A stretch of DNA of 64,000 bases, taken from Cellvibrio sp. KY-GH-1. GTDB lineage: Bacteria > Pseudomonadota > Gammaproteobacteria > Pseudomonadales > Cellvibrionaceae. The first letter of the stretch is position 1. Every line of letters starts with the position of its first letter. The position numbers were made by a program, and so were the translations under genes. The notes under the pieces are model-generated. The model was not told the DNA's origin and made no database searches. It saw only the letters and a program-made list of their open reading frames with translations. Below are positions 10,113 to 20,592 of the stretch, piece by piece. The DNA lies in the NCBI RefSeq assembly GCF_008806975.1, contig NZ_CP031728.1, positions 3,865,501 through 3,929,500 on the forward strand, read 5' to 3'.

Positions 10113-12227
10113 TTATCGCGCCTGACAAGCAGGTTGAGCCAGCCCAAGCACGTAATACTTGTCTGCCGCCAAGGGCGAGTTATAGGGAATCTGCCCATAT
10201 TTACCGGCAGTAGCATTCACATATTTCACCAGATCCTGACCCGCCGCAAAACGCCAGCTGTTGATGGTGCTTTGTGATGCCGCGCTGTAGTTGCTGGCAA
10301 GATTCGCCACAGTACCGTTGGTTGCAGTCAACGCGGTTTGGGTCGATGGGGTTAAATTACACGCGGCATCACTGAACCACAGCAGGTTGCGATCATTACG
10401 GAAGTAACCGTCGCTAATGTCCTTAAACAAATTCGCGCTGATTTCCGCCAATGAGGCTTCCACTGTGCTCTTTTCCTGATGGGCTGCGTTCACCATAAAC
10501 ACACTGTCTTCCATCAATGCACTCGCGCCTACACGCAAACTCAGAATCTGGTTGCGATAGTTTACAAACACATTGTTGAACATATGGGTTTTGCCGTGGC
10601 GCAACAGCGGCACGCGGCGCAGGGTATTGCCGAGCAGCGTGTAGCTATCGTCGGTAGTGATAAACGCGTTGTTGTGCATGGTAGTAGTGATTTGGGTATC
10701 AATGGTGTGGCTATCGCTGGAGCCGTGCAGCACCGCGCGTTTCACGTTAATCAAACGGTTGAACGACATAGTCACATTGTGCGCGCCCACTTTCACATCA
10801 AAGGCCGAATCGCCGGTGGTGTCGAAGGTATTTTTGTGAATCCAGATATCGTGGGATGCGCCGGTGGATCGGATCATATCCGGGTCGCAGTAGTGATCTT
10901 CGGTATGGCCCGCACCCTGAAATTTAAGGTGGGTCATGATCACACTATTCGCTGTTTGCGTTGGCGTACCGGTTTGGTCTTTACCAATCGCAAAACCGCT
11001 GAACAGGAAGTAAGCCTCGCTGCCGCGACCATCGATGGTTTTGTTGGAGCCGATCACCGGGTTGCGAATCGGGTTGGTGGATTTGTTCATCGCGACATTA
11101 AAGAACTGGGTAATACAGTTAGCACTGCTCACGCCGTTTTTCGCACACCATTGGGTGTAATTCACGCACTCGGCTTCAGTCGCGCCGAGGATGGATTGCA
11201 CCGTCGGGTTGCTACAACCCAAACGATACATTCCAATTTCAGATGGCTGGGCGAATTGAACTTTGTCGAACACAATCCAGTTGTGCGCTTCGCCGGTAAT
11301 CGCATTCAGGAGTTGCTGCTCAACCGAGACGCTGGAATTTTTGGTGATGATGGTGAGTTTGCTGTTGCCGTTAGGGTCAAAACCGCCCAGCGCTTTTTCA
11401 CCATAACCGACGGGTTTACCCAGAGTTTTGGACAAACAGCTGACAATTTCCTGATCAGTTTTTAACGCGGTATCGCGCCAGTTCACCGAAGGATTGGTGG
11501 CCAACTGGATACAGGCGGCACTGATAGCCCCGTTATCCGCAATGGAAGATGCACTGCTGGACTTGCTCGATACAACACTGGAACTTGCCACTGAACTGCT
11601 AACAACTACCGCGCTGCTAGCCACTGACGATTTACTGCTGGTAGCCGGAGTACTGCTAGGTGTTGTTGATGATTTACTGCTCGCAGAGCTGCTCAGGATT
11701 GCAGACGATTTTGAGGAGCTGGTTAGCGCCACACTGGATGACGATTTGCTGGAAGAAGTCACAGTACCCGTTGCGTTATACACTTCAAATTCGGCAATGC
11801 CCGGCGCGCTGGTGGCATTCACAATCAGGTTAATTTTCTTGGACGAACGCGGGCCAACATTCACCACTTTTTGTGCACCAATGCCGGTGCCGCTGGCAAA
11901 GACGGTACCGCTGTCGTTATCTACCAACTGCCAGTTGGTAATTTTGCTGCCGCTTTCGCGCAGGATCACGGTATTAAAACTTACCGCACTGCCCCACTTC
12001 ACTGACACTCGTTGATTGCTGGTACCACTCGCCACCGACACGGTGGCTGTACTGCCATCGCGCACGAGTTTGGTGTTATCAAAGCCCGAGCCATCAGCAG
12101 CGGCGCTGGGGCCAGTGATTGCCAGGTTGGCGCCGAGCGTCTGCGCATGAAGGACGGTTGCCAATAAACTAACAGCCATAAATGCCGCGCACTGGCCGGC
12201 ACGGCGAGAAAAATGTTTGGAATTCAT
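10113..12227 (-). CDS. Secreted pectate lyase, PL1 family, with carbohydrate-binding-like N-terminus
   Basis: Predicted to cleave polygalacturonate by calcium-dependent beta-elimination outside the cell. The 704-residue product has a signal peptide (about 1-28) and a discoidin/CBM32-like beta-sandwich (about 29-155) that may bind polysaccharide. A poly-serine linker (about 155-235) leads to a PL1 parallel beta-helix (about 245-640). Lyase features are HDIWIHKNTFD, SAFDVKVGAHNVTMSFN and RRVPLLRHGKTHMFNN (about 535-550), the last holding the expected catalytic arginine. AAGG lies eight bases before the ATG. The gene stands alone with its own terminator. The serine linker is typical of Cellvibrio and Saccharophagus plant-wall enzymes. 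Confidence 0.92.
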   Translation of the reverse strand: MNSKHFSRRAGQCAAFMAVSLLATVLHAQTLGANLAITGPSAAADGSGFDNTKLVRDGSTATVSVASGTSNQRVSVKWGSAVSFNTVILRESGSKITNWQLVDNDSGTVFASGTGIGAQKVVNVGPRSSKKINLIVNATSAPGIAEFEVYNATGTVTSSSKSSSSVALTSSSKSSAILSSSASSKSSTTPSSTPATSSKSSVASSAVVVSSSVASSSVVSSKSSSASSIADNGAISAACIQLATNPSVNWRDTALKTDQEIVSCLSKTLGKPVGYGEKALGGFDPNGNSKLTIITKNSSVSVEQQLLNAITGEAHNWIVFDKVQFAQPSEIGMYRLGCSNPTVQSILGATEAECVNYTQWCAKNGVSSANCITQFFNVAMNKSTNPIRNPVIGSNKTIDGRGSEAYFLFSGFAIGKDQTGTPTQTANSVIMTHLKFQGAGHTEDHYCDPDMIRSTGASHDIWIHKNTFDTTGDSAFDVKVGAHNVTMSFNRLINVKRAVLHGSSDSHTIDTQITTTMHNNAFITTDDSYTLLGNTLRRVPLLRHGKTHMFNNVFVNYRNQILSLRVGASALMEDSVFMVNAAHQEKSTVEASLAEISANLFKDISDGYFRNDRNLLWFSDAACNLTPSTQTALTATNGTVANLASNYSAASQSTINSWRFAAGQDLVKYVNATAGKYGQIPYNSPLAADKYYVLGLAQPACQAR

Positions 12228-13823: not shown

Positions 13824-15398
13824 TCACGTTCCAGCTTCATGCATTAATATTTTTTCCACTTTTATATTAAGCCGCTTGGCGATGCGCGCCAGGTTGGATC
13901 TATCCAACGTTAACAGCTCGGCGGCTTTCGTCCAGTTACCTTGCGCGGCATTAAGCGCTTCGATAATTTTTTCGCGCTGGAAGTTTTCGCTGGCGAGTTT
14001 TAACGAATAGGGAGCCAAAGCGGCTTTGGCTTTTTTGATCACCTGGGGTGTGGTGATTTCCAATGCGAGATGGCGAGGTTGGAGTTCGATAATCTTGTCG
14101 CTGGCTGCCGGGTCTTCCGCGCGCGCTTTTAATGCGGCGCGGCTAATCAAATGCTCAAGCTCGCGCGCATTGCCGGGCCAGGAATAATTCATCAGCGCCT
14201 GTTCACTTTGCGGCGCGAGTTTTAGTTGGCGCAGGCGCAATTTGCGCGCGGTGCTCTCCAAAAAATATCCTGCTAATAACAGCACATCCTCTTCGCGCTC
14301 ACTCAGTGGCGGGACGGTTATAGGATAGACGCTCAGGCGATGAAATAAATCGCTGCGAAAATGGCCCTGCTCCACTTCCTGTTTTAAATTGCGATTGGTC
14401 GCCGCTATTACGCGCACATTCACCCGCTCAACCTGATCCTGCCCCACCGGTTGGATTTCGCCGCTCTGCAAGGCGCGCAATAATTTGCTTTGAATGCTCA
14501 GCGGCAATTCTCCGACTTCATCCAAAAATAAAGTGCCGCCATTGGCCAGTTGAAATTTTCCGGCGCGATATTTTTCCGCGCCGGTGAAGGCGCCTTTGGT
14601 GTGACCGAATAATTCTGCTTCGGCGAGTGTCTCTGGCAGTGATGCGCAATTCACATGCACCAATGGCTGATGATTGCGATTGGATAAACGATGCAAATTG
14701 CGCGCAACCAATTCTTTGCCTACGCCCGTCTCACCTTGAATTAATACGGTGTAATCGGAGTTGGCGACCAAATTCACTTCCGCACGCAGTTGCTCCATAG
14801 CGGCGCTGCGGCCGATCATTTCGCCGCCCTCGCGCGACAATGCTTCCGAGGTTAACTCTTGCAATACGTCCTGATTGTGACGCGCAGCCAATTCCAATTG
14901 GCTGATGTGAAACGCGGTTTTCAAACTGGCTGCCGACATTGCGCTGATGACATCCAGCGTGCGTGCGGGAATCTGGTTAAACACGTCGGGCGTGAGACTG
15001 TCGAGCGTGACTACGCCGATCAATTGCTCATCGGAATAAAGTGGCAAACCCATACAGGCATGCACCGGCAGGTTGCCGGTGTGGGCGAGCAATAGTCCGT
15101 CGTAGGGGTCGGGCTCGGGCGCATCGGCAGAAAAACGCAGCGGGTGGCGCGAGCTGCAGATTTTTTCCAGGCGCGGATGTTCCTGAATGCGAAAGCGGCG
15201 CCCAAGGGTCTCGGCCGCCAAACCCTGAATCGCCAGCGGTTCCAGCACCTTGTCGTTAAACGCCAGCAGGGCTACAGCATCGCAGCGAATCGCTTTGCGA
15301 ATACTGGTCAACAGGCGGTCAAAGCGATCGTGGTTGCTTAAACTGCTGGCCAGATCCAGCGCCACTTCCACCAGTAAAGTCGTATTAAATTCGGCCAT
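13824..15398 (-). CDS. norR: Nitric oxide-sensing sigma-54 activator NorR
   Basis: Enhancer-binding protein that senses NO through a non-haem iron GAF domain and activates sigma-54 promoters. The 524-residue product has a GAF domain (about 20-170) and an AAA+ domain with Walker A GETGVGKE (about 219-226) and the sigma-54 contact loop GAFTGA (about 268-273). A Fis-type helix-turn-helix lies at the C-terminus (NWTKAAELLTLDRSNLARI). The ATG at 15398 (AAGGGG about six bases upstream) is chosen over a TTG eight codons earlier. The gene is divergent from the small membrane-protein gene, nnrS and hmp, and three matching binding sites lie in between. It may equally be called FhpR, as in Pseudomonas, because its target is a flavohaemoprotein. 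Confidence 0.95.
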   Translation of the reverse strand: MAEFNTTLLVEVALDLASSLSNHDRFDRLLTSIRKAIRCDAVALLAFNDKVLEPLAIQGLAAETLGRRFRIQEHPRLEKICSSRHPLRFSADAPEPDPYDGLLLAHTGNLPVHACMGLPLYSDEQLIGVVTLDSLTPDVFNQIPARTLDVISAMSAASLKTAFHISQLELAARHNQDVLQELTSEALSREGGEMIGRSAAMEQLRAEVNLVANSDYTVLIQGETGVGKELVARNLHRLSNRNHQPLVHVNCASLPETLAEAELFGHTKGAFTGAEKYRAGKFQLANGGTLFLDEVGELPLSIQSKLLRALQSGEIQPVGQDQVERVNVRVIAATNRNLKQEVEQGHFRSDLFHRLSVYPITVPPLSEREEDVLLLAGYFLESTARKLRLRQLKLAPQSEQALMNYSWPGNARELEHLISRAALKARAEDPAASDKIIELQPRHLALEITTPQVIKKAKAALAPYSLKLASENFQREKIIEALNAAQGNWTKAAELLTLDRSNLARIAKRLNIKVEKILMHEAGT

Positions 15399-15466
15399 AA
15401 ACACCCCTTGGCAAGGTCGCAATGGGGTTCATTATTCAGCAGTTGCAGTCAGATGTATACATAGCT

Positions 15467-15520
15467 GTCGATTTGACCTTTGCGTGTCATTCTGACAACA
15501 AAACATCAGGTCATAATGAC
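15467..15520 (+). promoter_or_regulatory. Three NorR binding sites (GT-N7-AC)
   Basis: Three copies of the NorR core are present: GTCGATTTGAC (15467-15477), GTCATTCTGAC (15486-15496) and GTCATAATGAC (15510-15520). The last is a perfect dyad. Start-to-start distances are 19 and 24 bases. Three enhancer sites upstream of a sigma-54 promoter is the arrangement known for norVW of Escherichia coli. They lie 58 to 112 bases upstream of the -24 element. Confidence 0.88.
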
Positions 15521-15577: not shown

Positions 15578-15593
15578 TGGCATAAGCACTGCA
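15578..15593 (+). promoter_or_regulatory. Sigma-54 promoter of the NO-detoxification operon
   Basis: TGGCAT-N6-TGCA with the invariant GG (15579-15580) and GC (15591-15592) ten bases apart, as sigma-54 RNA polymerase requires. Transcription would start near 15603, about 28 bases before the ATG of the small membrane-protein gene. It fits the NorR sites upstream. Confidence 0.85.
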
Positions 15594-15630
15594 ATAACAC
15601 TCCCAGTACATCCACACCGGGAGTTTCACC

Positions 15631-15879
15631 ATGACTTTTTACGACTTGTTTGAGCGCGAACAGGGACAGATGCTGCTGCGCTACTCCAGCCTGGGCCTGT
15701 TGGCATCTACCAGTGTATTTCTGCTCAGCATCGCGCTTTGCTATCCATTTGCCGCCAATTTTCCACTCGGCGTGTAGCTCGCTGGCCACCTGTTGATGCT
15801 CGCCGCCGGCGTGCTGATCAAGATCACCTACCTGCTGCGTTGTGTCGCCCAGCATGCCCTGCACCGCGAGGTAGGCTGA
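15631..15879 (+). pseudogene. Small two-helix membrane protein gene interrupted by an amber codon
   Basis: From the ATG at 15631 the frame reads 48 codons and meets TAG at 15775-15777. It then continues without further interruption for 33 codons to TGA at 15877-15879, one base before the nnrS ATG. The first part has a hydrophobic helix (about residues 18-42, LGLLASTSVFLLSIAL). The part after TAG has a second one (GHLLMLAAGVLIKITYLL). Together they would make an 82-residue protein with two membrane segments, of the kind I recall as a small gene ahead of nnrS in related bacteria. TAG could derive from CAG by one change. An ATG at 15796 could allow restart. Either a nonsense mutation or amber readthrough is possible. 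Confidence 0.75.
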
Positions 15880-15880
15880 G

Positions 15881-17119
15881 ATGAAATCAGTCCCGCTCTC
15901 CCGGATGCGCGCGTACTGGCAACGTCTACAGGTTTTGCTTACCGGCAGCGCGCTGCTATCCCAAGCCTTCCGGTCATTTTTTCTGGCCAGCGCCAGCTAC
16001 GCCTTGCTCGCGATGATCCTATGGCTGCTGACTCTGAGCGGCGAGCTGCAATGGCGGGCTGCGTTGAATCCGGTAGTCTGGCACGCCCACGAAATGTTGT
16101 TCGGCTTTGGCGCCACGGTGCTGAACGGGTTTCTTCTCACCGCCGCCAAACACTGGACCGGCCTCAACCCGATTTCCAGCTGCCAGTTGCTAGTGTCCGT
16201 CTCGCTCTGGTTGGCGGCGCGCGCATTGCTCGCCCTGAGCTTACTGGCGAGCGAGCTTAATTCCGCACTCTGGGTAGCAGCCAGTGCGGTGCTGGAATCC
16301 TGTTGGTGGATCCTGTCCATCGCGCTGCTCGCACGCGTGATTACCCAGGCAAAAAATTATCACAACTATCTGCTGCTGCCGCTGTTACTGGTGTTGATGA
16401 TGTTGGATAACGCCATCCTCTGGTTGGATTTATCCGCGCAGGATTCTCAAGCGCTGCAATTAACTCACACCAGCCTGTTGGTATTTGTGGTGATTATCGG
16501 CATTGTCGGCGGCCGCGTGATTCCGTTTTTTGCCGCGCGTGCGCTGAGCAACTTTCCCGCACCACCCATGCCAGTAGTGAATCGCTTGATTCTGATTATT
16601 TCGCTGTGTGGTTTGGCGAGTTACAGCCTCGGCATTTTTTATTCCCTGGCGATTCCCGGCTATGGATTTTTTTATGCGCTGGCGGTGTTGCATTTCTATC
16701 GTTTGTATCACTGGTTGGATCGCAGACTATTCGCGCAGCCGATGCTTTGGTCGCTGCTGCTCGCCTATTTTTTTACCGCGTTGGGTTTGGCGCTGATTGG
16801 TGCCAGTTTGCAAAATCCAGCTATCTCACTCGGTAATGCCCTGCACCTGATCACCATAGGTGCTCTGGGGTTAATGATGCTCTCGATGATGGCGAGGGTT
16901 TCGCTCGGCCATACCAATCGCAGCATTGTTGCCACTCACTCCCTAGTCTTCGCGTTTGTTTGCCTGCTGCTCGCGGCAGTAACACGCGCATTCGGCGCCC
17001 TGCTGTTTCCCGAACTGATTTTTTTGCTCTCGTTAGTCAGCGGCATTTTATGGTCAACCGCGTTTCTGATTTTTATCAAAAACTTTTACCCGATTTTAAT
17101 TTCACCCCGGTTAGTTTAA
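15881..17119 (+). CDS. nnrS: NnrS family haem- and copper-containing membrane protein
   Basis: Polytopic inner-membrane protein of 412 residues with about 12 hydrophobic segments. NnrS proteins bind haem and copper and protect cells against nitrosative stress; the exact reaction is not settled. Family features include the HAHEMLFGFGATVLNGFLLTA region (about 66-86), VGGRVIPFFAARAL, and HLITIGALGLMMLSMMARVSLGHT near 315-345, with conserved histidines as likely ligands. It starts one base after the stop of the interrupted small gene and is followed by hmp 33 bases later. It is placed under NorR and sigma-54 control by the upstream promoter. Confidence 0.95.
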   Translation: MKSVPLSRMRAYWQRLQVLLTGSALLSQAFRSFFLASASYALLAMILWLLTLSGELQWRAALNPVVWHAHEMLFGFGATVLNGFLLTAAKHWTGLNPISSCQLLVSVSLWLAARALLALSLLASELNSALWVAASAVLESCWWILSIALLARVITQAKNYHNYLLLPLLLVLMMLDNAILWLDLSAQDSQALQLTHTSLLVFVVIIGIVGGRVIPFFAARALSNFPAPPMPVVNRLILIISLCGLASYSLGIFYSLAIPGYGFFYALAVLHFYRLYHWLDRRLFAQPMLWSLLLAYFFTALGLALIGASLQNPAISLGNALHLITIGALGLMMLSMMARVSLGHTNRSIVATHSLVFAFVCLLLAAVTRAFGALLFPELIFLLSLVSGILWSTAFLIFIKNFYPILISPRLV

Positions 17120-17152: not shown

Positions 17153-18340
17153 ATGTTATCCAAAGATTCATTTCCCATCATTCAAGCGACTTTGCCGGTG
17201 GTGAAAGCCAATGGCGAAAAAATTACCCGACATTTTTATGCGCGTATGTTTGAACATCACCCCGCATTAAAAAATCTTTTTAACATGGGCAATCAAGCCT
17301 CGGGCGAACAGGCGCAAGCCTTAGCCAATGCGGTTTACGGTTATGCAGCGAATATTGATAAGCAAGAAATTATCGATCCAATTTTAAATCGCATCGCTCA
17401 TAAACATGTGAGCCTGGGTATTACACCGGCGCAATACACTATTGTCGGGCGGCATTTACTCAGCTCCATTAAAGAAGTGCTGGGCGATGCCGTAACTCCC
17501 AGTGTGATGGCCGCCTGGGATGAAGCCTATTGGTTGATGGCCTGCGATTTAATTGCGCGTGAAGCCAGACACTACCAAAGTATTCATTGGAACCCGGGGC
17601 AGGAATGGAATGACATGGAAGTGGTAGAAAAAATTCATTGCGCACTCGATGTGGTATCTCTCTATTTGCGCCCAAAAAATTCCCATCAATCCATGACCTT
17701 TTTACCCGGCCAATATGTCAGCGTCTGCTTGCCGGTAGCGGAATTGGGCTTAACACAAAATCGCCAATACAGTTTGTCCAACTCACCACTGGAAGGCGTT
17801 TGGCGCATTACCGTAAAACGTGAGCAACCTAAATTCGGCCCAAAAGGAAATGTATCCAATCTCATTTATGATCAGCTTGCCGTGGGCAATAGTATTTTGG
17901 TTGGGCCACCCGCCGGCGAATTTGTCGTGGAGGATCAACCAACACCCATAGTGCTATTAAGTGCGGGCATAGGTATAACGCCGATGATTTCGATTCTGCG
18001 CGATCTGGCGGTACACGACTCACCGCGCAAAATTGTATTTGCCCATGCCACCAGTCAATTGGAAAATATTCCGCATTTGGACGAAATCAATCGCGAGGTT
18101 CAAAACCTGAGCGATGCGCAATTAAATCTATGGCTGGAACACTCCAGCTTTAATTACGATTCATTTTCCGGTCGGATGGATTTATCTCAGTTAAAGGATC
18201 TGCCGCTGGATGCAGATTTTTATATCTGCGGGCCAATGCCATTTATTCAAGCGCAAAAGCATTGGTTAATTTCGGCCGGTGTGTGCGTAAATAAAATTCA
18301 CTATGAAGCCTTTGGGCCGGATGTGTTTGGTGGTCACTAA
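17153..18340 (+). CDS. hmp: Flavohaemoprotein, nitric oxide dioxygenase
   Basis: Oxidises NO with O2 and NAD(P)H to nitrate in the cytoplasm. The 395-residue product matches the family. The globin domain (about 1-140) has the B10 Tyr29, the proximal His85 and Tyr95. The FAD domain (about 150-260) has RQYSLSN. The NAD domain has SAGIGITPMISIL, and the C-terminal part has YICGPMPFI and HYEAFGPD. AAAGGAG precedes the ATG. As the last gene of the norR-controlled operon it is the effector enzyme; NnrS and the small membrane protein would be accessory. Confidence 0.96.
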   Translation: MLSKDSFPIIQATLPVVKANGEKITRHFYARMFEHHPALKNLFNMGNQASGEQAQALANAVYGYAANIDKQEIIDPILNRIAHKHVSLGITPAQYTIVGRHLLSSIKEVLGDAVTPSVMAAWDEAYWLMACDLIAREARHYQSIHWNPGQEWNDMEVVEKIHCALDVVSLYLRPKNSHQSMTFLPGQYVSVCLPVAELGLTQNRQYSLSNSPLEGVWRITVKREQPKFGPKGNVSNLIYDQLAVGNSILVGPPAGEFVVEDQPTPIVLLSAGIGITPMISILRDLAVHDSPRKIVFAHATSQLENIPHLDEINREVQNLSDAQLNLWLEHSSFNYDSFSGRMDLSQLKDLPLDADFYICGPMPFIQAQKHWLISAGVCVNKIHYEAFGPDVFGGH

Positions 18341-18344
18341 AAAC

Positions 18345-18380
18345 ACATTCAGCGTCGGCAATATTGCCGACGCTGAATGT
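18345..18380. terminator. Perfect 36-base palindrome between convergent genes
   Basis: ACATTCAGCGTCGGCAAT is followed directly by its exact reverse complement. As RNA it gives a 16-base GC-rich stem with an ATAT loop four bases after the hmp stop. It sits between hmp (+) and the PEBP gene (-), so it is probably a bidirectional terminator, although the T-runs are poor. Confidence 0.7.
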
Positions 18381-18423
18381 AGCTTTCTAAAATTAATGAG
18401 CGTGCAATGAATTCCACTTTAAC

Positions 18424-20069: not shown

Positions 20070-20342
20070 TCAATACACCTGATCATGACTCCCCACATCC
20101 ACCAAAATAATGTCTTTATCGGTGATGATCAGTTCCAACACAATCCGGTAACCCATGTTGATGGATACCGATGAAAGCCCGCTTAAGCGGCCTTGCAGAC
20201 TGTGTAGTCGTAAGGAGGGGTGGTAGGGGTTTAATTCGAGTAGCTCCAGCGTTTTTTGGTATTGGCCGCGAAGCTCGGGGTGCTTCTTGATGAATTTGGT
20301 GGCTTTTTTGAGATAGGTTTCGGGGTAGATCAACCTATACAT
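20070..20342 (-). CDS. RelE/ParE-superfamily toxin
   Basis: Toxin of a type II toxin-antitoxin pair, 90 residues from the ATG at 20342. It probably acts as a ribosome-dependent mRNA interferase or as a ParE-like gyrase inhibitor; the sequence does not decide. The fold is suggested by YLKKATKFIKKHPEL at the start, LHSLQGRLSGLSSVSI in the middle and YRIVLELIITDKDIILVDVGSHDQVY-type strands at the end. A longer frame starting at 20387 lies inside the antitoxin gene and is rejected. The ATG overlaps the antitoxin stop by eight bases (ATGTATAG), the tight coupling usual for such pairs. Confidence 0.87.
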   Translation of the reverse strand: MYRLIYPETYLKKATKFIKKHPELRGQYQKTLELLELNPYHPSLRLHSLQGRLSGLSSVSINMGYRIVLELIITDKDIILVDVGSHDQVY

Positions 20343-20592
20343 CGCCGCTAACTCTGCGCATATGGTCGGCAACAGACTCGGTGACAAAGCGCCCTGCCTC
20401 TACATCCGCTTTGGCTTCCTGCACGGCCATCGCCAACTCGTATTCGCGCAGTTTGTTGTATTTTTCCAAGTCCATAATCACATAGCGATCCTGCCCGCGC
20501 ACGGAAATGATGACTTCTTCATCCACCGCCAAACGCGCCTCTACAGCGGATATACCTTTAGTTTTTAGATCGTTCGCAGGCAGTACACTCAT
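20335..20592 (-). CDS. Phd/YefM-type antitoxin
   Basis: Antitoxin of 85 residues encoded upstream of and overlapping the RelE/ParE toxin. The N-terminal part (MSVLPANDLKTKGISAVE, then VIISVRGQDRYVIMDLEKYNKL) has the Phd/YefM DNA-binding fold pattern. The C-terminal part (about 50-85) is acidic and helical and would wrap the toxin. Known members bind their own promoter, which would lie within 20593-20700. The pair sits between nhaA and an unknown exported protein gene and looks intact. Confidence 0.85.
   Translation of the reverse strand: MSVLPANDLKTKGISAVEARLAVDEEVIISVRGQDRYVIMDLEKYNKLREYELAMAVQEAKADVEAGRFVTESVADHMRRVSGDV

What the first reader, a model, noticed from the sequence alone, without database searches (positions are those of the whole stretch)
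15631..15879. Amber codon splits a small membrane-protein gene at the head of the NO-detoxification operon
The frame has a sound start, two hydrophobic helices and a stop one base before nnrS, but TAG at 15775-15777 falls in the loop between the helices. Reading through gives an 82-residue protein; stopping gives a 48-residue one-helix peptide. No other disruption exists in the 249 bases, so the break is recent, or TAG is read through, or the halves are made separately with restart at the ATG at 15796. Because nnrS follows by one base, its translation may depend on the upstream frame.
Basis: partly seen in the sequence, partly recalled or inferred. Interest (0 to 1): 0.7.

Follow-up and report, generated by a model that had tools for sequence, protein, structure and literature searches.

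The report
Nonsense-broken ppyR-like gene before nnrS
A small membrane-protein gene at the head of a nitric-oxide-defence operon is cut by a stop codon that its examined relatives do not share, most likely a recent chance loss in this one genome; that is ordinary, although the gene family itself is conserved and poorly understood.

Summary
In detail: frame 15631-15879 is open except for TAG at codon 49, and nnrS starts one base after its end. The gene belongs to the two-helix family named PpyR in Pseudomonas. No inner stop was seen in the matched stretch of relatives: 24 other genomes of 144 searched, 51 others of 390 (overlapping sets), and 79 of 80 named Pseudomonas loci, the last cut by N. 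One relative, G062, keeps only the second half. Intact relatives at 95% and 67% identity exist. The invariant residues H-x10-K-x2-Y-x2-R all lie after the stop, so a 48-residue product lacks the family's core. RF1 is present, TAG ends other genes, and no amber-reading tRNA was found in an incomplete search. Best reading: a recent strain-level nonsense mutation in a NorR/sigma-54-type operon. The nnrS ribosome-binding site is predicted to be buried, so weaker nnrS translation is plausible but untested. Functional read-through is unlikely but not excluded.

The parts
13824..15398 (-). norR, divergent NO-responsive sigma-54 activator (ATG taken as 15396-15398)
   Evidence: NCBIfam NF003451 NorR 722 bits over cut-off 476, scanned as 13824-15404; GAF, Sigma54_activat and HTH_8 domains
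15467..15477 (.). NorR-type site 1, GTCGATTTGAC
   Evidence: pattern scan; GT-N7-AC consensus in PMC1274295 section 10
15486..15496 (.). NorR-type site 2, GTCATTCTGAC
   Evidence: the strict form GTCANNNTGAC occurs at two places in the 64-kb window, both here
15510..15520 (.). NorR-type site 3, GTCATAATGAC
15578..15592 (+). sigma-54 (-24/-12) promoter-like element TGGCATAAGCACTGC
   Evidence: such an element is found before 15 of the 16 family loci with norR alongside (own included; one only by a looser pattern, at -191). The pattern TGGCAN7TGC alone occurs 4 times on this strand of the window
15619..15623 (+). Shine-Dalgarno GGGAG of the small gene
   Evidence: sequence
15631..15777 (+). first part of the ppyR-like gene: 48 codons, helix 1, ending at the amber codon
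   Evidence: database record P0003
15775..15777 (+). in-frame TAG, codon 49
   Evidence: flagged as '1 TAG' in the genome searches
15778..15879 (+). rest of the ppyR-like gene: 33 codons and TGA, helix 2 with the invariant H-x10-K-x2-Y-x2-R
15868..15872 (+). GAGGT, likely Shine-Dalgarno of nnrS inside the tail of the small gene; predicted to be paired
   Evidence: unpaired probability 0.00-0.08 at each base
15881..17119 (+). nnrS, intact, 412 aa
   Evidence: PF05940, E 2.4e-91
17153..18340 (+). hmp-like flavohaemoglobin gene, 395 aa
   Evidence: Globin, FAD and NAD domains over their cut-offs; NF009805 394 bits, below its cut-off of 432
18344..18381 (.). 17-pair stem-loop, likely end of the transcription unit
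   Evidence: listed as terminator-like on the - strand; pattern match, 4 found against 4.1 expected in the stretch

Best explanation
This is the ppyR-like first gene of a NorR/sigma-54-type NO-defence operon (ppyR-like, nnrS, hmp), broken by one recent nonsense mutation in this strain. Under NO, NorR bound at three sites upstream would switch on transcription from about 15605 (inferred from known NorR operons). Ribosomes starting at 15631 stop at codon 49 and give a 48-residue, one-helix peptide without the invariant H, K, Y and R of helix 2, most likely non-functional. The second half is not made in useful amounts. nnrS is still translated from its own GAGGT at 15868-15872, perhaps less well, because that site is predicted to be paired and would normally be opened by ribosomes finishing the small gene. 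Shown: the stop, the homology, the lost motif and intact relatives. Inferred: loss of function, the age of the mutation, and the effect on nnrS.
For: Relatives run through the column: 24 of 24 other genomes with a match among 144 searched; in the order, no inner stop in the matched stretch of 51 of 51 others among 390, 50 of which match on both sides of the column while G062 matches only from position 45; 79 of 80 named Pseudomonas loci open, the other cut by a run of N; P0001 and P0002 intact. The sets overlap in part. H-x10-K-x2-Y-x2-R is in 105 of 105 loci read (the window counted, with X at the stop) and in 50 of 51 database proteins; the exception is the 48-residue P0003. It is absent from 18,748 residues of 45 long frames of the window. 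Against P0001 the window has 3 changes in the first 48 codons and none in the 33 after the stop; besides the stop, only residue 43 is changed in the window where P0001 and P0002 agree, as expected of a young break. The genome has no second copy (1 match at E 1e-4). RF1 is present. TAG ends 7 of 45 long non-overlapping frames of the window.
Against: The motif count is partly circular: relatives were gathered by similarity, and one of the two patterns used to fetch the Pseudomonas loci contains the K and Y. The 33 codons after the stop show no decay, which a functional read-through product would also predict; with only 3 changes between window and P0001 this has little power. The DNA of P0001 and P0002 was not reached, so no dN/dS test was made. 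The 48-residue product also stands as database cluster P0003 with 2 members and a longest contig of 6,360 bases, so the truncated form may exist in more than one record and be older than 'recent' suggests. G062 shows that the second half can stand alone behind its own ATG, which leaves room for a use of half-proteins.
Confidence: 0.74

Rival explanations
1. Sequencing or assembly error: the strain has an intact gene and TAG is a base-call error.
For: A single codon is the only defect; a 95%-identical intact relative exists.
Against: The genome is one contig of 5,762,391 bases, completeness 100. Database cluster P0003, the exact 48-residue product, is tied to a contig of 6,360 bases, not the chromosome record; its source is hidden, so independence is not proven.
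Confidence: 0.1
2. Functional amber read-through: a fraction of ribosomes insert an amino acid at codon 49 and make the 82-residue protein, perhaps a deliberate low dose.
For: The frame downstream is intact and its residues undecayed; UAG followed by C is a rather leaky context (recalled, not tested).
Against: No relative examined has a stop here. No CTA anticodon among the tRNAs that ARAGORN called at the 42 places found, and none in three pattern scans checked by ARAGORN (53, 55; 57, 60). RF1 is present. The tRNA search was incomplete: 150 of 240 candidates were scored, and no tRNA for Ile(GAT) or Ala(TGC) was in the list; the patterns demand a consensus T loop and A37.
Confidence: 0.08
3. 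Two half-proteins: helix 1 stops at 15777 and helix 2 starts again at ATG 15796, and the two assemble.
For: An in-frame ATG lies 18 bases after the stop; the invariant residues at codons 64, 67 and 70 would be on the second piece. In G062 a second half stands alone behind an ATG that overlaps the stop of another frame.
Against: Invariant His53 lies before ATG 15796 and would be lost; G062's half keeps it. That ATG has no clear Shine-Dalgarno (by eye) and aligns with an inner Met of P0001 and P0002. No relative with both halves split was seen.
Confidence: 0.04
4. The 48-residue frame now serves mainly as a leader peptide whose early stop tunes nnrS/hmp expression by removing translational coupling.
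For: The one-base junction with nnrS recurs in 4 of 7 loci. The nnrS ribosome-binding region has mean unpaired probability 0.14, against 0.40 for 60 random places of the transcript, 5% of which are as low.
Against: Predicted structure only, without control for base composition; the small gene's own site is also low (0.25) and hmp's is 0.35. The stretch folds no better than shuffled sequence (z 0.48). No sign that the change was selected.
Confidence: 0.04

Closest known systems
PpyR (PA2663) of Pseudomonas aeruginosa and its named Pseudomonas relatives
   Same: Size (about 75-90 aa), two predicted transmembrane helices, the same H-x10-K-x2-Y-x2-R, profile match over 71 columns (hhalign probability 98.9). 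In P. aeruginosa it shares an operon with PA2662, a predicted NnrS, and fhp (PMC9112911 and PMC3299288 passages). Among the 80 Pseudomonas loci nnrS follows in 55 and divergent norR with hmp precedes in 7
   Different: Here it is the first gene, before nnrS and hmp, and is interrupted by TAG; in P. aeruginosa it lies after fhp. Identity of P0001 to the four proteins named PpyR is 22-26%. Control of psl or pyoverdine genes, reported for PA2663 by Attila et al. 2008 (not read; seen as cited in two papers), was not tested here.
NorR/sigma-54 NO-detoxification operons (norVW of E. coli, hmp of Pseudomonas and Vibrio)
   Same: Divergent norR, three tandem GT-N7-AC sites followed by a -24/-12 element; the sites lie at -164, -145 and -121, and P. 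stutzeri hmp has them at -192, -173 and -148 (PMC1274295 passages)
   Different: Order ppyR-like, nnrS, hmp; not one of the arrangements named in the passages and the section of that paper that I saw
Strain-specific nonsense pseudogenes of bacteria
   Same: One in-frame stop in an otherwise intact, conserved frame
   Different: Nothing beyond its place at the head of an operon

Membership tests
PpyR family | Sequence homology to proteins named PpyR | tested here: met
   Profile A1 finds four Pseudomonas proteins named PpyR at E 1.2e-12 to 4.6e-9; hhalign of A1 with those four: probability 98.9, E 1.2e-17
PpyR family | Two transmembrane helices in a 75-90 residue protein | tested here: met
   Hydropathy of both halves; model of intact relative P0001 with helices 3-37 and 46-76, pLDDT 86.9. 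Met by the frame, not by the 48-residue product
PpyR family | Invariant H-x10-K-x2-Y-x2-R (defined here) | tested here: met
   Encoded at codons 53-70, after the stop; the product that stops at codon 48 lacks it
PpyR family | Regulates exopolysaccharide and pyoverdine genes | not testable with these tools
   Reported for PA2663 (PMC3299288 and PMC9112911 passages)
[quoted passage not shown]
   (sequence only)
Nonsense pseudogene | Relatives intact at the stop, with conserved residues lost | tested here: met
   exception with another kind of loss: G062
Nonsense pseudogene | No product of the part after the stop | not testable with these tools
   needs proteomics or ribosome profiling
Amber suppression or recoding | A tRNA that reads UAG, or loss of RF1 | tested here: inconclusive
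   RF1 present; no CTA tRNA found, but the search was incomplete
Split gene with a second start | Start with a ribosome-binding site after the stop, or relatives split in two | tested here: not met
   No Shine-Dalgarno seen at 15796 (by eye); no relative with two halves; one with the second half alone

The most novel reading that the evidence does not exclude
The amber codon is used: under NO, leaky read-through yields a small dose of the full two-helix protein, while the early stop uncouples nnrS from its leader, so one codon sets the ratio of PpyR-like protein to NnrS.
Probability: 0.05. Interest if true: 0.7.

Novelty: new member of a known kind. Interest (0 to 1): 0.28.

Why it matters
The stop itself is probably an ordinary recent loss. 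Its use is as a natural knock-out: a strain with an intact norR-nnrS-hmp unit but a broken ppyR-like gene could show what this conserved membrane protein contributes to NO defence. The comparison also shows that the family extends beyond Pseudomonas, often lies beside norR, and keeps a histidine in helix 2, which makes the old suggestion that PpyR senses NO (PMC3299288, PMC9112911) testable, for example by looking for bound haem.

Tried and rejected
Pfam and NCBIfam on the two halves and on P0001 and P0002: no family at a meaningful score (P0002 has one chance-level Pfam match, E 0.14). Pfam on 50 relatives: best E 0.011. PDB by sequence: best E 0.25. PDB by fold: no match at E 0.001 or better; the model is a plain helical hairpin. 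Phage records: no match. Plasmid records: two distant matches in large Pseudoalteromonas and Vibrio replicons. The order-level hit flagged with an inner TGA (G161, L101) was dropped: the TGA lies before the ATG. Of the three short Pseudomonas matches, L179 and L180 are open further upstream and L176 is cut by N. A possible CTA anticodon loop at G000:C1:3958477-3958515 was judged by eye to lie in an atpA/atpG-like junction; ARAGORN called no tRNA there. 22 of the 80 Pseudomonas loci showed none of norR, hmp or nnrS in tblastn at E 1e-5 within the DNA held, so linkage to NO genes is frequent, not universal. In one search the tool reported no match on the reverse strand although its control gave 11; searches cover that strand. 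One search read too few files and printed nothing; one search replaced it.

Full report
What is there. The frame 15631-15879 is as described: ATG at 15631 behind GGGAG (15619-15623), TAG at 15775-15777, and TGA at 15877-15879, with nnrS starting at 15881. The neighbours are norR on the other strand (NF003451, 722 bits against a cut-off of 476), nnrS (PF05940) and a flavohaemoglobin gene whose three domains pass Pfam but which scores 394 bits against NCBIfam's 432 for Hmp. Between norR and the small gene lie three NorR-type sites (15467, 15486, 15510) and a -24/-12 element at 15578-15592. The strict motif GTCANNNTGAC occurs at two places in the 64-kb window, both here. NorR is known to bind three tandem GT-N7-AC sites before a sigma-54 promoter (PMC1274295, section 10 read). 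In P. stutzeri the hmp sites stand at -192, -173 and -148 (passage); here they stand at -164, -145 and -121. Of the 25 family loci (own included), 16 have norR alongside within 1,500 bases; of these 16, 13 show NorR-type sites and 15 a sigma-54-like element, one of them only by a looser pattern.

What the gene is. A search with X at the stop found two intact 82-residue relatives, P0001 (95%) and P0002 (67%), and the 48-residue product itself, P0003. A profile of 19 rows then found 51 proteins, among them four Pseudomonas proteins named 'transmembrane sensor/regulator PpyR'. A profile-profile comparison with those four aligns 71 columns at probability 98.9. PpyR is PA2663 of P. aeruginosa, in the same operon as fhp and PA2662, a predicted NnrS (passages of PMC3299288 and PMC9112911). 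It was suggested there to sense NO; the original work (Attila et al. 2008) was not read. Passages seen in PMC6546240 and PMC9414441 added nothing on its function. Neither Pfam nor NCBIfam has a model that matches the two close relatives at a meaningful score, and none of the 50 members of A4 matched a Pfam model better than E 0.01.

Is the stop shared? Not in the relatives examined. In the window's family, 25 of 144 genomes have a match and only the window's carries a stop. In the order, 52 of 390 genomes have a match; two were flagged with a stop, the window's TAG and a TGA in G161, which lies before the ATG. That leaves 51 other genomes without an inner stop in the matched stretch; for most of them only the table row was seen. 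One of the 51, G062, matches only from position 45: it encodes the second half alone, from an ATG overlapping the TGA of another frame, so it has lost helix 1. The two sets overlap. Of 80 named Pseudomonas loci, 77 are open from the match start for 78-89 residues, two (L179, L180) are open further upstream, and one (L176) is cut by N. The window's own genome has no second copy at E 1e-4.

What is lost. In 19 aligned sequences, and again in 50, the invariant residues are H53, K64, Y67 and R70, all after codon 49. The motif H-x10-K-x2-Y-x2-R occurs in 105 of 105 loci read and in 50 of 51 database proteins, the exception being P0003, and not once in 18,748 residues of 45 long frames of the window. 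These relatives were gathered by similarity, and one of the two patterns that fetched the Pseudomonas loci includes the K and Y, so the count overstates the conservation somewhat. A model of P0001 is a two-helix hairpin, 3-37 and 46-76 (pLDDT 86.9), so the stop falls at the start of helix 2. A 48-residue product keeps helix 1 only.

Read-through or error? RF1 is encoded. At 42 tRNA places (150 of 240 candidates scored; twelve stretches fetched) ARAGORN named no CTA anticodon. The list lacks Ile(GAT) and Ala(TGC), so it is incomplete. Three pattern scans for a CTA anticodon loop gave 10, 12 and 23 places, partly the same ones, and no tRNA in any (53, 55; 57, 60). TAG ends 7 of 45 long frames of the window. 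The genome is one contig, and P0003 is tied to a contig of 6,360 bases, which speaks against a base-call error without proving it.

How old? Against P0001 there are 3 changes before the stop and none after. Besides the stop itself, only residue 43 is changed in the window where P0001 and P0002 agree. This fits a young mutation. It cannot tell neglect from selection.

Effect on nnrS. nnrS follows on the same strand in 7 of the 25 family loci, and in 4 of these 7 the spacing is one base. Its GAGGT (15868-15872) has an unpaired probability of 0.00-0.08 at each base; the region's mean is 0.14, against 0.40 for 60 random places of the transcript (5% as low), 0.25 for the small gene's own site and 0.35 for hmp's. 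The stretch as a whole folds no better than shuffles (z 0.48). Coupling, and hence some loss of nnrS translation, is plausible but not shown.

Verdict. This is most likely a real, strain-level nonsense codon in a conserved ppyR-like gene, a recent loss of function. It is ordinary as a pseudogene and mildly useful as a natural knock-out of a little-studied NO-linked protein. Six literature searches listed no title on this gene outside Pseudomonas; the lists were capped and the library holds open-access papers only.

Noticed in passing
G062:C1:669201-669314 (L218, - strand): A relative that encodes only the second helix with the invariant motif, starting at an ATG that overlaps the TGA of another frame: helix 1 is missing, either a remnant or a half-size member.
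   Followed up: partly
window 20070-20592 (-): Likely type II toxin-antitoxin pair: a YafQ/ParE-like toxin (20070-20387) and a Phd/YefM-like antitoxin (20335-20592), matched at E 6e-4 or better but below Pfam's cut-offs.
   Followed up: partly
G000:C1:1046937-1048082 (L002): A second nnrS, 32% identical to the window's, elsewhere in the genome; the best match of the window's nnrS in the 20 other genomes of the genus is only 42% identical.
   Followed up: partly
family alignment A4, residues 53, 64, 67, 70 of P0001: The PpyR-like family keeps H-x10-K-x2-Y-x2-R in the 50 rows aligned; a histidine within the second helix is a candidate haem or metal ligand (inference).
   Followed up: partly
L005-L013: In these nine relatives the small gene stands beside norR, with NorR-type sites and a sigma-54-like element, but without nnrS within the 1,500 bases held downstream.
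   Followed up: partly
window 18344-18381: 17-pair stem-loop between the convergent hmp and 18424-18981 genes, a likely shared terminator.
   Followed up: no
window 10113-12227 (-): Pectate lyase with a long serine-rich linker, in keeping with a plant-polysaccharide degrader.
   Followed up: no
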